A program made the position numbers and the translations under genes. Under the pieces are notes generated by a model, which had not been told where the DNA came from, did no database searches, and saw nothing but the letters and a program-made list of their open reading frames with translations. Below, piece by piece: positions 11,684-26,794 of a stretch of 64,000 nucleotides of DNA. Position 1 is the first letter of the stretch; every line of letters begins with the position of its first letter. Source of the stretch: Candidatus Thiodiazotropha sp. LNASS1 (lineage in GTDB: Bacteria > Pseudomonadota > Gammaproteobacteria > Chromatiales > Chromatiaceae); contig NZ_OZ156465.1 of the NCBI RefSeq assembly GCF_964212655.1, positions 2,914,001-2,978,000 of the forward strand, written 5' to 3'.

Positions 11684-12361
11684 TTATTCGACCTGAAGTG
11701 ATTTGACCCGTGTTTTTATCTGTTCCATACGCGCAACTCCCTGTTCAAAAATCTCTCCGCACGCATCGGGAATAGGGTGACTTTCCGCCTGGGTGAGCAG
11801 CGCCTCCAGCTGGATCGGATCAAACAGGGTGACTGCGGCCTCGAACTCGGCCTGATCGGCACTCAACAGGGCAGGCAGCAGCTCATCCTGGGCAATCGGT
11901 GACTCGGGATCCAGAAGGTCCGCCACCAGAGGGCTTTCAAGCAACTCATAATGTGCCTGGCGAGCAATCTCTTCTTGTTCCAACTCTTGATGCGCAAGGG
12001 TGTCATTTCCCGAACCCTTCCACACCGATCGCATGATCACTTCCACCAGTTTTTTTATCGCCTCTTTGTTGGGCGTCTGATCATCAGCCAGGCGACATGC
12101 TGTTTCATAGGCCTGGTCGAGCCGTTCCTTCAATCCCAAAATGACATCGCTCTGCTCATGTGGACCTAGCGCCACAGCCTCTCCGACCAGGCCGCGTAAA
12201 TCTCCGATATAGGCCACCAGCTCCTCATGATCACGGCGCTGGGCCTCCCTCAATTGCGCTTGTGTCAGCTCTCGGGCCGCCTCGGGGAAGAGGGGATTAT
12301 CATGTTTTCGCAGCAGATGGCGTTCATGCCTTCCAGGGCGCTCACTAAACAACAAACTCAT
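11684..12361 (-). CDS. Uncharacterised Glu-rich helical protein
   Basis: A 225-residue acidic protein not recognised as any named family. It has no signal peptide or membrane segment. The sequence is almost entirely amphipathic helix with many Glu/Gln/Leu (for example ELEQEEIARQAHYELLE and the FDPIQLEALL repeat-like segment). An EAxxLFDPIQLEALL stretch near residue 185 may be a short interaction helix. I place the start at the ATG 12361 (MSLLFSERPG), with an AGAG just upstream; an in-frame TTG five codons earlier is an alternative. The frame is long and of compatible codon use, so I accept it as a gene without proposing a role. Confidence 0.65.
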   Translation of the reverse strand: MSLLFSERPGRHERHLLRKHDNPLFPEAARELTQAQLREAQRRDHEELVAYIGDLRGLVGEAVALGPHEQSDVILGLKERLDQAYETACRLADDQTPNKEAIKKLVEVIMRSVWKGSGNDTLAHQELEQEEIARQAHYELLESPLVADLLDPESPIAQDELLPALLSADQAEFEAAVTLFDPIQLEALLTQAESHPIPDACGEIFEQGVARMEQIKTRVKSLQVE

Positions 12362-12522
12362 ATTCAACTCTGTCAAAGAAGAGGTCTAAATGGAGAGTTT
12401 TACCATGAAAAGGCGGTCAATGGGCATATTCCTGGCCTACACAGCGTTCACCATCGGAAAGTCTCAGGAAAGGAGAAATAGTCCAAATTTTACTCGTGAA
12501 GCGCCTGTTAATAGCTAATTTA

Positions 12523-12536
12523 TTGATATTAATCAG
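12523..12536 (+). promoter_or_regulatory. FNR-type operator upstream of small ORF A
   Basis: TTGATATTAATCAG matches the FNR/Anr consensus TTGAT-N4-ATCAA at 9 of 10 defined bases. Placing a start site 41.5 bases downstream of its centre (near 12571) puts TACCCT (12559-12564) at the -10 position, the geometry of a class II FNR-activated promoter. The small ORF A begins at 12650. The site is seen in the sequence; regulation by FNR is inference. Confidence 0.5.
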
Positions 12537-12649
12537 TTGTTTCTGCGTCAAGAGCAATTACCCTACTCGGCGCAGTGTTAATGCTGCACAACGTTTACAT
12601 CGAGTTGCGTGAACTTTTATGGTCAGTGTCAAACTTGGAGGACATCACC

Positions 12650-12730
12650 ATGTTAGGTAGTGAAAAGGCAATCGTTGGAGCAATAGCCATTTTGGTACTC
12701 GGAATTGTCGCCGCAGTACTGCTTGGCTAA
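12650..12730 (+). CDS. Small membrane peptide A (26 aa), paralogue of 13550-13630
   Basis: Encodes 26 residues: a polar head MLGSEK, then about 20 uninterrupted hydrophobic residues with glycines at 3, 10, 18 and 26, so a single transmembrane helix almost fills the peptide. GGAGG precedes the ATG by 8 bases. The evidence for coding comes from the second copy at 13550-13630: 18 of 26 residues are identical and the remaining changes are mostly conservative, yet 10 of the conserved codons differ only at synonymous positions. This indicates protein-level selection after duplication. I do not recognise a family. It lies convergent to the hemerythrin gene. Confidence 0.8.
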   Translation: MLGSEKAIVGAIAILVLGIVAAVLLG

Positions 12731-12733
12731 ATG

Positions 12734-12764
12734 AAAAAGGGCGGTGGAGTAGCCTCTACCGCCC
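12734..12764 (-). terminator. Rho-independent terminator of the hemerythrin gene
   Basis: An 11-bp stem (12739-12749 with 12754-12764, one G-U pair) around the 4-base loop 12750-12753. On the minus strand it is followed by five T residues (12734-12738). It lies 28 bases beyond the hemerythrin stop. On the plus strand the same hairpin follows small ORF A but lacks a T-tract, so it would act less well there. Confidence 0.75.
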
Positions 12765-12791
12765 TGGCCTCTGCAAATCAATCGATAGGTG

Positions 12792-13226
12792 TTACATCAC
12801 CTGGCTGAGAAACTGTGCGGTAACCATGTCCATGCTCTTCACATGCTGGTCAAACCAGGCCCGCCATTCAACAAAGATATAGTCGGCAAGCTGCTGTAAT
12901 CCCTGCTCCCTCAACCACTGATCCTGCACTGACTCGATTCGTGTTAGCACCTCTGCATGCTCCGCCTTATGTACAGGGTAGGGCGGAAAGGCATAGCTTT
13001 CCATCAATCTGTTTTCACCCTCGAAATGGGCACGAGTATGCTCCACCCACTCAGCCAGCAGATGGCTGATCTGTTCAGGGTCCAGAGCGCCATCAATGGC
13101 TTGCAACACCATCTCACCCAGCCGGTTGATCAGGCCGACCTCCTCCATGTGGACTTCGTTCATGGATGTCAGGGCCACACTTGGCAACTCAGCAATATCA
13201 ACCACGGGCAAATGATATGGACTCAC
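12792..13226 (-). CDS. Bacteriohemerythrin
   Basis: A 144-residue single-domain, cytoplasmic, non-heme diiron oxygen-binding protein. All seven canonical iron ligands can be placed: H26; H67 and E71 in HFEGE; H86 and H90 in HKAEH; H128 and D133 in HVKSMD. Bacterial hemerythrins store, carry or sense O2 (some react with NO). Translation starts at GTG 13226 with GAGAG upstream. A perfect FNR palindrome sits 64 bases before the start codon and a terminator follows the gene. Two paralogous 26-residue membrane-peptide genes flank it on the opposite strand. Confidence 0.93.
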   Translation of the reverse strand: MSPYHLPVVDIAELPSVALTSMNEVHMEEVGLINRLGEMVLQAIDGALDPEQISHLLAEWVEHTRAHFEGENRLMESYAFPPYPVHKAEHAEVLTRIESVQDQWLREQGLQQLADYIFVEWRAWFDQHVKSMDMVTAQFLSQVM

Positions 13227-13549
13227 GATGGACTCTCGTAGCGGCTGTCGGAAACCGTGGCATGCTACTCGATTGACCTGTACAGACCTTTGATTTCGAT
13301 CAACACTCTGCCAGATAAGCCATGGGGATCTACCGATTGTTTGTCTGCAGGTAAACCATATTATTCAACAAATCATCGATATAGATATCACAAGGCTTAA
13401 TACCTTGTAATTATTATGGTATTTGATTGCAAATATTGAAATTCAATCTTTTCACACCAAGTGTATACATGAAACCAGATCCAAGGGACTGGTTGTGAGG
13501 CACGACAAAACGACTCTTTTTTAAGCTGTTTGTTAAAGGAGGCTACACT
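13227..13549. other. Divergent intergenic region, hemerythrin / small ORF B
   Basis: About 320 bases, AT-rich in its right half. It contains the FNR-type palindrome at 13290-13303 serving the hemerythrin promoter and, on the right, the long leader of small ORF B ending in an AAAGGAGG ribosome site. No promoter for small ORF B could be assigned with confidence, and no further coding frame is seen. Confidence 0.55.
13290..13303 (-). promoter_or_regulatory. Perfect FNR-type operator of the hemerythrin promoter
   Basis: TTGATTTCGATCAA is an exact TTGAT-N4-ATCAA palindrome. Its centre at 13296.5 is 41.5 bases upstream of an inferred start near 13255. On the minus strand TAGCAT (13262-13267) fills the -10 position. 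This fits a class II FNR/Anr-activated promoter driving the hemerythrin gene under low oxygen. The palindrome is directly visible; the start site and regulator are inferred. Confidence 0.7.
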
Positions 13550-13630
13550 ATGTTAGGCAGTGAAAAGGCCATTATCGGCGCGATCGGTCTCATTCTGCTC
13601 GGTATTATTGCATCGGTACTAATCGGATAA
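13550..13630 (+). CDS. Small membrane peptide B (26 aa), paralogue of 12650-12730
   Basis: Same length and plan as peptide A: MLGSEKAI head, hydrophobic helix, glycines kept at 3, 10, 18 and 26, ending in Gly-stop. A strong AAAGGAGG lies upstream of the ATG. Substitutions relative to A are mostly Val/Leu/Ile or Ala/Gly/Ser exchanges, and most synonymous positions have drifted. A 14-bp G-U-containing hairpin follows the stop immediately. The product would be a single-span inner-membrane peptide; role unknown. Confidence 0.8.
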   Translation: MLGSEKAIIGAIGLILLGIIASVLIG

Positions 13631-13637
13631 GCGGCAT

Positions 13638-13671
13638 CGCCTGGTGATTGAACTATCTCAGTCGCCGGGTG
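13638..13671 (+). terminator. Hairpin after small ORF B (possible transcript 3' end)
   Basis: A 14-bp stem containing several G-U pairs (13638-13651 with 13658-13671) around a 6-base loop starts 7 bases after the stop codon. No T-tract follows, so it is either a Rho-assisted end or a stabilising 3' structure for a short messenger. Confidence 0.45.
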
Positions 13672-13720
13672 TATCTGCGACATCTGTCATGGAAACAGGC
13701 TGTAGTTGTAGAATCGTCTG

Positions 13721-14608
13721 TTAACAACCGATGTCTGTTTCTGCATCGAATCCCGGATTGATCGCTTCATAGAGGGATGAGTAGTCTTCATCCCCGTAAC
13801 CTGCATCCTGACCGTTTAGAAGAACCTTCAGCGTGGCATTTGAAATCTCACTGTTCATACCCGATGCCTCTGTCACCTGCTGAAACAGGGCGATATCCTT
13901 GATCAGGTGCTTCAAGGGAAAGTTAGGATTGCTGTAGTCGTGCTCCATGAATTTCTTCAGTTTCTTGTCGAATGTGGGCGCATAGAGGGCACTCTGGCGC
14001 AATAACCCCATGAACTGCTCCACCTCCACACCCTCTGCGCGGATCAGGCCAAGACTCTGTGAGAATCCTACGGTAAGCGAGGCGATCAATTGGTTCATTG
14101 CCAATTTCACTGCAGCGCCCTTGCCTACAGGCCCAAGGTGCTCAACCTCCTTTCCAAGCCCCCGCAGCATCAGCAGGGTCTGGTGGTATGCGCTCTCTGA
14201 ACCTGCCGCCATGACAATCAGTTCGCCGGATTTTGCTTCCGGAATACTCCCCAATACGGGTACCTCGAGATAGTCTCCGCCCGCCGCCTCCACACTTGCG
14301 CCGATGTCACGACTCTCATCGGGAGAGATGGTGCCCATCTGCAGTATCGACTTTCCCTTTATCAACGGCTTCACCGAGCTATCGAACAGCACATCTTTGA
14401 TCGCTTTGGCATCACTGAGGGTCAGAATCAATACATCACCGGCAGTCACTGCTGCAGTGAGTGATGATTCCACGCTCAATCCCTCCTCCTTCGCGATCTT
14501 CAATCGTTCTTTCGAGCGGTTCCAGGCAATCACATCATGGCCACAATGAACCAGTCTGTGGGCAATCGGAAGACCCATCAAGCCAAGCCCCAGCAGTGCT
14601 ACTTTCAT
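13721..14608 (-). CDS. NAD(P)-dependent beta-hydroxyacid dehydrogenase family protein
   Basis: A 295-residue member of the 3-hydroxyisobutyrate dehydrogenase / glyoxylate-succinic semialdehyde reductase family. The N-terminal Rossmann motif is GLGLMG (residues 6-11). A substrate-binding segment EVPVLGSIPEAKSGEL follows, and then the catalytic lysine region KGAAVKLAMNQ, leading into an all-helical C-terminal domain. Substrate (glyoxylate, succinic semialdehyde, tartronate semialdehyde) cannot be decided from the sequence. It lies directly downstream of hemE (17-base gap), so it is probably cotranscribed. Confidence 0.88.
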   Translation of the reverse strand: MKVALLGLGLMGLPIAHRLVHCGHDVIAWNRSKERLKIAKEEGLSVESSLTAAVTAGDVLILTLSDAKAIKDVLFDSSVKPLIKGKSILQMGTISPDESRDIGASVEAAGGDYLEVPVLGSIPEAKSGELIVMAAGSESAYHQTLLMLRGLGKEVEHLGPVGKGAAVKLAMNQLIASLTVGFSQSLGLIRAEGVEVEQFMGLLRQSALYAPTFDKKLKKFMEHDYSNPNFPLKHLIKDIALFQQVTEASGMNSEISNATLKVLLNGQDAGYGDEDYSSLYEAINPGFDAETDIGC

Positions 14609-25643: not shown

Positions 25644-25658
25644 GCACCATAAAAGTGC
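25644..25658. promoter_or_regulatory. NtrC operator 2 of glnA
   Basis: GCACCATAAAAGTGC, a second NtrC dyad with the same outer GCAC/GTGC arms. Its last base overlaps the stop codon of the CDF transporter gene. Confidence 0.68.
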
Positions 25659-26794
25659 TAGCCGAACCAGATGTGGACATCCCTGAATATCTCCGATCCC
25701 TTGACCGCCGCCTGATAATCGCTATGTAACTGCTCTGCTTGCTGATTAGAGACGAAGCAGTGTAATGGCAAGTAAAGCTCGATATCAATGCGTCCTGAAA
25801 GATAGTGAAGAACCACGCGCGCTTTCTGGTCATAGCAGGAAACACCACGGCAGACCCGGTCGAGTGCGGCCTCTGCCTCCGACCTAAGCGGCAGGTGGGT
25901 ACAGGAGGGCCCAGCCTCATCATCCTCCGGGTCGATATGGACGGTGACATCTTCCAGTACATCCACCCGGTCGATCAATCCGTACTGGACCACTTCGGCG
26001 ATTCGGTGCCCCTCGGAGACACTCACCCAGGGATCGACCTGGACATGAACATCGGCCATGGCATGACCTCCCAGCTTCCGGGTGCGCAGCATATGTACAC
26101 TCTTGACCCCTGAAATATTGCCGATCACTTCGCGAATCTGCGTTAAAGATTCCTCTTCAAGACCCGCATCCGCCAACTCCTGGGATGCCGTCCAGCCCAG
26201 ATCCCAACCGATTTTGATTATCATCAAACCGACAAGTACTGCTGCGATGGCATCCAGATAGGGAAGGCCCATCATGGTGCCGCCAATACCTACGAACACC
26301 ACTACCGAAGAGACGGAGTCGGTTCGGTGGTGCCAAGCATTAGCCCGCAGCAGGTTTGAATTGATCTGGTTGGCGAAGTAGCGGGTGTAGAAGAAGAGCC
26401 CCTCATTGGCAAGAATGGAAAAGGCGGCCACATAGAGGGTAAAGGTTTCCGGCTGTAACAGCTGCTCGGGTGTAAACAACCGATCTGCGGCATCCCAGAC
26501 GATCCCGACACCAACCGCGATCAGAAAACCGCCCAGCACCAGGGTGCCGATGGTCTCGAATCGACCGTGACCGTAGGGATGCTCCTCATCGGGGGCCTCT
26601 TTTGCATGCCGTGCGGTAAACAGCACCAGGGCATCTGTCAGCAAATCGGATAGCGAATGCACGCCATCCGCCAATAGGGATTGGGAATGACCCAACCAAC
26701 CGAATAACAATTTGACGATAGCCAGTATTGTATTGGTCAATGCGCCTGCTACGGCAACCCGGCGACTGACATCATAGCGTTCTTCCCGACTCAT
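25658..26794 (-). CDS. Cation diffusion facilitator (CDF) family metal exporter
   Basis: A 378-residue inner-membrane antiporter that exports divalent metal (Fe, Zn, Mn or similar) against protons. The transmembrane metal-site motifs are LADGVHSLSDLLTDALVL and HPYGHGRFETIG. Six predicted helices are followed by a cytoplasmic ferredoxin-like domain with the HVQVDP and VTVHIDPEDDE strands. A further C-terminal extension of about 80 residues contains a second region with CYDQKARVVLHYLSGRIDIELYL. The start codon overlaps the stop of the TusA-like gene (ATGA), so it belongs to the operon with the PP-loop enzyme and TusA-like protein. Confidence 0.9.
   Translation of the reverse strand: MSREERYDVSRRVAVAGALTNTILAIVKLLFGWLGHSQSLLADGVHSLSDLLTDALVLFTARHAKEAPDEEHPYGHGRFETIGTLVLGGFLIAVGVGIVWDAADRLFTPEQLLQPETFTLYVAAFSILANEGLFFYTRYFANQINSNLLRANAWHHRTDSVSSVVVFVGIGGTMMGLPYLDAIAAVLVGLMIIKIGWDLGWTASQELADAGLEEESLTQIREVIGNISGVKSVHMLRTRKLGGHAMADVHVQVDPWVSVSEGHRIAEVVQYGLIDRVDVLEDVTVHIDPEDDEAGPSCTHLPLRSEAEAALDRVCRGVSCYDQKARVVLHYLSGRIDIELYLPLHCFVSNQQAEQLHSDYQAAVKGSEIFRDVHIWFG

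What the first reader, a model, noticed from the sequence alone, without database searches (positions are those of the whole stretch)
12650..13630. Duplicated 26-residue membrane-peptide genes bracketing a hemerythrin
ORFs at 12650-12730 and 13550-13630 encode single-helix peptides of equal length. 18 of 26 residues are identical, but 10 of the 18 shared codons differ synonymously and nonidentical residues are mostly conservative (Ile/Leu/Val, Ala/Gly/Ser), which shows selection on the peptide. Both have strong GGAGG-type ribosome sites, conserved glycines at 3, 10, 18 and 26 and a polar MLGSEK head. They flank a bacteriohemerythrin gene on the opposite strand. I know of no named family like this; they are too short for standard gene callers. 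A low-oxygen or oxygen-handling membrane module is the inference.
Basis: partly seen in the sequence, partly recalled or inferred. Interest (0 to 1): 0.75.

Follow-up and report, generated by a model that had tools for sequence, protein, structure and literature searches.

The report
Low-oxygen-controlled tiny membrane-helix gene pair
Clam symbionts related to Thiodiazotropha carry one or two 26-residue membrane-helix genes that look kept by natural selection, and the main copy, like its hemerythrin neighbour, sits behind what looks like a textbook switch for low oxygen.

Summary
In detail: two 26-codon ORFs, 18/26 residues identical, 10 of 18 shared codons synonymous, both with GGAGG sites, flanking an antisense hemerythrin gene. 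The genus is Candidatus Thiodiazotropha. Copy 1 (PEP1) is found in 20 of 22 listed congeneric genomes (one a remnant without start codon), copy 2 in 10; two genomes of other genera hold single distant copies elsewhere. No match in Pfam, NCBIfam, PHROGs, PDB, phages or plasmids. PEP1 pN/pS is 0.29 in frame, 0.89 and 3.2 in the other forward frames. New here: PEP1 has a class II FNR-type promoter (TTGAY-N4-RTCA, 22 bp, TACCCT or close; centre -41.5) in 17 of 19 genus loci, and the hemerythrin has one in 16 of 16. The 64-kb window matches this pattern only there (0.17 expected). PEP2 has none of its own. PEP1 keeps its box where hemerythrin has left the locus, so the low-oxygen inference is supported but a joint module is not. 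Likely function: FNR-induced single-helix accessory of a low-oxygen membrane complex, packing through small residues (A7, G10, A11, G18, S/A22, G/S26). bd, aa3-like and Nor-like oxidases fail as obligatory partners; cbb3 stays possible. Partner unproven.

The parts
12523..12536 (+). FNR-type operator TTGATATTAATCAG of PEP1
   Evidence: one of 2 class II pattern matches in 64 kb; TTGAY-N4-RTCA at this place in 17 of 19 genus loci
12559..12564 (+). -10 element TACCCT, 22 bp after the operator; predicted transcription start about 12571
   Evidence: the start is inferred from -41.5 geometry, not mapped
12637..12641 (+). Shine-Dalgarno core GGAGG of PEP1
12650..12730 (+). PEP1, 26-aa single-helix membrane peptide MLGSEKAIVGAIAILVLGIVAAVLLG
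12738..12765 (+). G+C-rich hairpin right after PEP1, at the convergent junction with the hemerythrin gene (terminator-like; T run only on the minus strand; the terminator scan does not flag it)
12792..13226 (-). hemerythrin-domain protein (144 aa), neighbour with the same type of promoter
13262..13303 (-). class II FNR-type promoter of the hemerythrin gene (TTGATCGAAATCAA - 22 bp - TAGCAT)
   Evidence: 16 of 16 hemerythrin loci
13538..13542 (+). Shine-Dalgarno core GGAGG of PEP2
13550..13630 (+). PEP2, 26-aa paralogue MLGSEKAIIGAIGLILLGIIASVLIG; no FNR box of its own found
13638..13671 (+). hairpin after PEP2 (terminator-like, no T run)

Best explanation
PEP1 is a true small-protein gene with its own promoter and its own hairpin end. 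Low oxygen activates FNR, which binds the operator centred at -41.5 and switches on a short mRNA (leader of about 80 nt, 78-nt coding part, hairpin). The product inserts as one helix in the inner membrane (polar residues 3-6, helix 7-26). It packs through a small-residue ridge (A7, G10, A11, G18, S/A22, G/S26) against a larger membrane protein of the low-oxygen respiratory chain, as an accessory or modulating subunit, or less likely against itself. PEP2 is a tandem duplicate without an FNR box of its own, under somewhat looser selection. Shown by sequence: the gene, selection, promoter architecture and its conservation, hydrophobic helix, invariant small residues. Inferred: FNR binding and activation, single-gene transcript, membrane insertion, accessory role. 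The partner is a guess: cbb3 oxidase is the one oxidase class tested that occurs throughout.
For: Conserved ORF in 20 of 22 listed congeneric genomes at one syntenic place in 19 of 19 genus loci opened (window plus 18). pN/pS 0.29 for PEP1 (15 distinct sequences) and 0.45 for PEP2 (9). Class II FNR-type promoter in 17 of 21 upstream regions (19 genus, 2 outgroup), 0.0005 expected from letter shuffles (its pattern demands the 22-bp spacer). One search measured the spacer without demanding it: 22 bp in 13 of 13 loci where it picked this box; in 4 others it picked another place and the box shows. -10 is TACCCT in 15, close forms in 2. 29 perfect FNR boxes in the genome against 2 for the reversed control; near them a cytochrome d1 protein, multihaem and c-type cytochromes, COX3-like proteins and NnrS. 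FNR orthologue over the NCBIfam cut-off in 11 of 11 genomes. FNR-like boxes upstream of ccoN in G000, G049 and G117 (ccoN position in G117). Mean hydropathy of residues 7-26 is 2.6-2.9 in 5 of 5 computed; A7, G10, G18 invariant in 24 of 24, position 11 A/S, 22 S/A/T, 26 G/S. E. coli FNR-activated promoters mostly have the site near -41.5 (PMC3688515, passages).
Against: No expression or protein data. No partner gene travels with the peptide: the outgroup copies lie beside a tmcA-like gene (G049) and before a gene that I read by eye as speE (G117), and neither has the promoter. cbb3 also occurs in genomes that lack the peptide, so the profile does not point to it. Copies look damaged in G010 (no start codon, leader displaced) and altered in G011 (CTG start, box lost) and G001 (weaker ribosome site). 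One reverse frame also has a low pN/pS, 0.44. Of 15 FNR boxes opened, 5 lie inside long ORFs. The promoter pattern was written after seeing these sites, and the loci are related by descent.
Confidence: 0.5

Rival explanations
1. A YohP-like stress peptide: it acts by itself, dimerising through glycines and changing membrane properties or membrane potential to lower metabolism when oxygen is short; no dedicated partner enzyme.
For: Same size and build; YohP (27 aa) rises under oxygen limitation and is said to dimerise through an unusual glycine motif (PMC12719787, abstract and passages). Invariant small residues on the helix. No travelling partner gene seen.
Against: The large aliphatic residues are conserved too, more than a simple dimer would seem to need (inference). 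No sequence comparison with YohP was made.
Confidence: 0.25
2. The toxin half of a type I toxin-antitoxin pair (membrane-depolarising peptide held down by an antisense RNA).
For: Short hydrophobic peptide, duplicated. The start codon is predicted mostly paired in 4 of 8 leaders folded, as in a held-down message.
Against: Ribosome site predicted open (0.70-0.76 unpaired) in 4 of 8 leaders, but only 0.24-0.57 in the other 4. No promoter-like site on the opposite strand (a weak scan that also misses the PEP1 promoter). No Rfam match better than E 0.52. PEP1 has no match on phages or plasmids. A conserved activator-type promoter is unlike a silenced toxin (inference).
Confidence: 0.1
3. An FNR-induced regulatory RNA (FnrS-like) whose small ORF is secondary or part of a dual-function RNA.
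For: Short predicted transcript with hairpins; conserved letters at the predicted start and just before the ribosome site.
Against: Substitutions follow the reading frame (pN/pS 0.29 against 0.89 and 3.2 in the other forward frames); a start-region hairpin showed no significant covariation (80-85 of 500 shuffles reach the observed values); the middle of the leader is poorly conserved.
Confidence: 0.08
4. A membrane partner or anchor of the neighbouring hemerythrin, making an oxygen-handling unit.
For: Adjacent in 16 of 16 loci that keep hemerythrin, with the same type of promoter in front of hemerythrin in 16 of 16.
Against: PEP1 and PEP2 stay in three genomes where hemerythrin left the locus (a relative lies elsewhere); no match to this hemerythrin in G049; the genes are convergent, so not one transcript.
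Confidence: 0.07

Closest known systems
YohP of Escherichia coli (27 aa small membrane protein; PMC12719787, abstract and passages seen)
   Same: Size, single helix, glycine-based packing, higher under oxygen limitation.
   Different: The paper places yohP between the mdtQ pseudogene and dusC and links it to starvation and stationary phase; the word fnr does not occur in its text. Sequences were not compared here.
CcoM, 36-aa subunit of cbb3 oxidase of Pseudomonas stutzeri (PMC10433244, abstract and passages seen; the original paper PMC4742706 is not held)
   Same: Tiny protein tied to oxygen-limited life; a cbb3-class oxidase is present in the peptide-bearing genomes.
   Different: No PDB chain matches the peptide profile at E <= 10; 26 aa rather than 36; no physical link shown.
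CydX-type subunits of bd oxidase (recalled)
   Same: Small single-helix oxidase subunits (recalled).
   Different: The window's own genome has no CydA match at E <= 1e-10, so this partner is excluded here.
FNR-activated genes of E. coli such as ydfZ and fnrS (PMC3688515, passages)
   Same: Operator at -41.5 or -42.5.
   Different: No sequence relation claimed or tested.

Membership tests
FNR class II activated promoter | TTGAT-N4-ATCAA-like operator | tested here: met
   TTGATATTAATCAG at 12523; TTGAY-N4-RTCA in 17 of 19 genus loci, 0 of 2 outgroup loci
FNR class II activated promoter | Operator centred near -41.5 (here: 22 bp to the -10 element) | tested here: met
   22 bp in 13 of 13 measured freely, 17 with the pattern that demands 22; the start itself is not mapped
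FNR class II activated promoter | FNR regulator in the genome | tested here: met
   11 of 11 genomes over the NF008365 cut-off
FNR class II activated promoter | Binding and low-oxygen induction | not testable with these tools
   needs expression data
Small single-helix membrane proteins (a kind, not a sequence family) | Under 50 aa, one hydrophobic helix | tested here: met
   26 aa, mean hydropathy 2.6-2.9 over residues 7-26 in 5 of 5 computed
Small single-helix membrane proteins (a kind, not a sequence family) | Selected as a protein | tested here: met
   pN/pS 0.29 and 0.45
Small single-helix membrane proteins (a kind, not a sequence family) | Translated and found in the membrane | not testable with these tools
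   needs Ribo-seq or proteomics
CydX (bd oxidase subunit) | CydA in the same genome | tested here: not met
   No CydA match in G000 at E <= 1e-10
CcoM / cbb3 oxidase subunit | cbb3 oxidase in the genome | tested here: met
   380-400-bit COX1 class in 20 of 21 peptide-bearing genomes tested, G008 with fragments only; ccoN named in G000 and G049, ccoO in G000, ccoP in G000, G049, G117
CcoM / cbb3 oxidase subunit | Sequence relation to a solved subunit | tested here: not met
   No PDB chain at E <= 10; CcoM itself was not compared by name
Type I toxin | Antisense RNA antitoxin | tested here: inconclusive
   No opposite-strand promoter-like site in a weak scan
Pfam, NCBIfam, PHROGs, Rfam families | Match over threshold | tested here: not met
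   Pfam with both window peptides, NCBIfam and PHROGs with 9 members (only Psb35 at E 0.47 for 2 members), Rfam on 12300-13800 (only SNORD35 at E 0.52, under its gathering score)

The most novel reading that the evidence does not exclude
PEP1 is an unrecognised single-helix subunit or tuner of the cbb3 high-affinity oxidase, switched on by FNR together with a hemerythrin oxygen carrier, forming with it an oxygen-scavenging route that lets clam symbionts breathe at very low oxygen beside sulfide.
Probability: 0.12. Interest if true: 0.78.

Novelty: new member of a known kind. Interest (0 to 1): 0.5.

Why it matters
It adds a selected small-protein family with a low-oxygen type of promoter, matched by none of the libraries searched, to uncultured chemosynthetic symbionts, and shows that conserved promoter geometry can back up ORFs of 26 codons that gene callers may skip. 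It gives a precise prediction: PEP1 and the hemerythrin rise together at low oxygen, PEP2 need not. In gill metatranscriptomes of Ca. T. endolucinida one hemerythrin is among the 36 named genes that are in the top 100 in all three hosts (PMC13137333, section 24 part 1 and passages seen); what I saw does not tell which hemerythrin, so this is a lead only.

Tried and rejected
Joint module with hemerythrin: rejected as obligatory. CydX-like role: rejected. aa3-like oxidase as obligatory partner: its ~500-bit class has no match in G049 and G117; Nor-like class (~265 bits): none in G001, G003, G006; the class names aa3-like and Nor-like are my reading of bit scores.

Wider family: class-level scans of 369 genomes gave only the genus at E <= 0.001 with A1; with A3 ten more genomes had hits (E 4.5e-4 to 0.094), all partial and in frames of 104-454 aa, taken as chance membrane segments. 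Of 210 family genomes, outside the genus only G049 and G117 have full-length hits in a small ORF; the weaker hits there (E 0.07 and up) are partial, a few of them in short frames of 20-49 aa, and were not opened.

Start-region hairpin: 88% of cells paired, covariation not significant. One search was the same test with brackets misplaced by me and is not used. The test used 13 leaders; duplicates were entered once, and G010, G011 and G117 were left out. Mobile origin: no phage or plasmid match with PEP1. Structure prediction was not run: the peptide is under the 30-aa minimum.

Selection test: reverse frames gave 0.92, 0.44 and 2.87, so one reverse frame is also low. Dropped before the pN/pS count: G010 and G011. 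G186 was not opened, so promoter and synteny counts rest on 19 of the 20 peptide-bearing genus genomes. Chance figures come from shuffles (letters, dinucleotides, where 2 of 100 shuffles had two or more matches), the patterns were written after seeing the sites, and the loci are related, so they overstate the strength. Hemerythrin 16 of 16 uses a loose -10 (TRNNNT) and a spacer of 22-24; in 5 loci the box lies only 0-37 bp before the first possible start codon, so the true start is probably further in. PEP2: the hemerythrin box lies 206-289 bp upstream of it in 6 of 9 loci, so action at a distance is not excluded.

Full report
What is there. Both ORFs are exactly as reported: 26 residues each, 18 identical, GGAGG ribosome sites, on the plus strand on either side of a minus-strand hemerythrin-domain gene. 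Local order: a CAP/YkwD-like protein (under the NCBIfam cut-off), a 230-aa protein with no Pfam or NCBIfam match, PEP1, hemerythrin, PEP2, a 3-hydroxyisobutyrate-dehydrogenase-like protein, hemE.

Whose it is. The scan of named genomes gave 10 loci: 5 bear the name Candidatus Thiodiazotropha, 4 are gamma-proteobacterial symbionts of the clams Ctena or Stewartia, 1 is a Chromatiales MAG. The T. endolucinida contig (275,134 bases) has the same length as contig C2 of congeneric genome G009, from which I take the genus. The window lies in a one-contig genome of 4.75 Mb.

Spread. With profile A1, 20 of the 22 congeneric genomes shown have the peptide, G014 and G017 do not. The 20 include G010, a remnant without start codon, and G011, with CTG. 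PEP1 or its remnant sits at one syntenic place in 19 of 19 genus loci opened (window and 18 others). In G017 hemE, the dehydrogenase and the 230-aa gene keep their order with neither peptide nor hemerythrin between them; the G014 contig is only 3.6 kb. PEP2 is in 10 of the 20. Of 210 family genomes only G049 (beside a tmcA-like gene, with a T-tailed hairpin) and G117 (before a gene that I read by eye as speE) have a full-length copy outside the genus. Class-level scans of 369 genomes add nothing convincing. Libraries: no match over threshold.

Selection. Pooled pairwise pN/pS is 0.29 for PEP1 (15 distinct sequences), 0.45 for PEP2 (9), 0.33 together (24). The same PEP1 DNA in forward frames +1 and +2 gives 0.89 and 3.2, in the reverse frames 0.92, 0.44 and 2.87. 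In 24 distinct sequences A7, G10 and G18 are invariant; 11 is A or S, 22 is S, A or T, 26 is G or S. On a helix such residues make a small-residue face, the usual mark of tight helix packing (established knowledge); that it packs against a partner is inference.

Promoter. Upstream of PEP1 the genus keeps TTGAY-N4-RTCA, then 22 bp, then TACCCT (15 loci) or a close form (2), in 17 of 19 genus loci and 0 of 2 outgroup loci. This puts the operator centre 41.5 bp before the predicted start at 12571, the position of most FNR-activated promoters in E. coli (PMC3688515, passages). The hemerythrin has the same architecture in 16 of 16 loci. A generalised pattern hits the 64-kb window twice, at these two genes, with 0.17 expected. 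Over 23 stretches totalling 336 kb it hits 37 times, 33 of them at PEP1 or hemerythrin; of the 4 others, 2 are in G010 (what I take for the displaced PEP1 box, and the reverse reading of the hemerythrin box) and 1 each in G018 and G004. The genome holds 29 perfect FNR boxes against 2 of the reversed control. I opened 15 of the 29: 5 lie inside long ORFs. Of ten genes near the rest, Pfam names a cytochrome d1 protein, multihaem and c-type cytochromes, two COX3-like proteins and NnrS; two have no match and one is a T2SSF protein 847 bp off. An FNR orthologue is in 11 of 11 genomes tested. PEP2 shows no such promoter in 9 of 9 loci.

What it does. Shown: a selected gene with a low-oxygen type of promoter and a hydrophobic one-helix product. 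Inferred: FNR activation, membrane insertion, accessory role. Partner by elimination: no CydA in the window's genome; no aa3-like match in G049 and G117, no Nor-like match in G001, G003 and G006; the cbb3 class in 20 of 21 peptide-bearing genomes tested, with only fragments in G008; FNR-like boxes before ccoN in G000, G049 and G117 (the G117 position rests). cbb3 also occurs without the peptide (G014, G017 and others), so this is compatibility, not proof.

Against a hemerythrin module. In G004, G018 and G013 a gene of 396-399 aa lies where hemerythrin should be, yet PEP1 with its box, and PEP2, remain; only the G018 one was scanned, and it is fatty-acid-desaturase-like with a second match to a transposase domain. 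G049 has no match to this hemerythrin. Common control plus adjacency is the better description.

Known kind. It works like small stress-induced single-helix proteins (YohP, CcoM; CydX recalled) but was not shown to belong to any of those families. In the listings of the searches made no paper describing this peptide appeared; the library holds open-licence papers only.

Noticed in passing
window 11684-12376 (-): 230-aa protein with no Pfam or NCBIfam match, one match in each of 10 of 10 genomes tested, including two other genera at 49-50% identity; a conserved unnamed family.
   Followed up: partly
window 12571-12583: CGCAGTGTTAATG right at the predicted start of the PEP1 transcript (CGCAATGTTATTG in many other loci) is conserved in most genus loci; possible second regulator site or 5' hairpin.
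   Followed up: no
window 12619-12651: Possible hairpin that puts the PEP1 ribosome site in a loop and the start codon in a stem; 88% of cells paired, no significant covariation.
   Followed up: partly
L035 (G010), L037 (G011), L039 (G001): Apparent decay: G010 lacks the start codon and its leader lies displaced; G011 has CTG and no box; G001 has a weaker ribosome site and an MLDND head.
   Followed up: partly
L027, L028, L033: A gene of 396-399 aa lies between the two peptide genes in place of hemerythrin; the L027 one matches fatty acid desaturase and also a DDE transposase domain.
   Followed up: no
L029, L030, L031, L032, L034, L035: In six genomes a gene of about 630 aa lies between hemerythrin and the dehydrogenase, where PEP2 is elsewhere; the L029 one is a histidine kinase with a receiver domain.
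   Followed up: no
window 26214: A perfect FNR box (TTGATTATCATCAA) lies inside a coding region (25658-26794, cation-efflux-like by eye), probably not regulatory.
   Followed up: no
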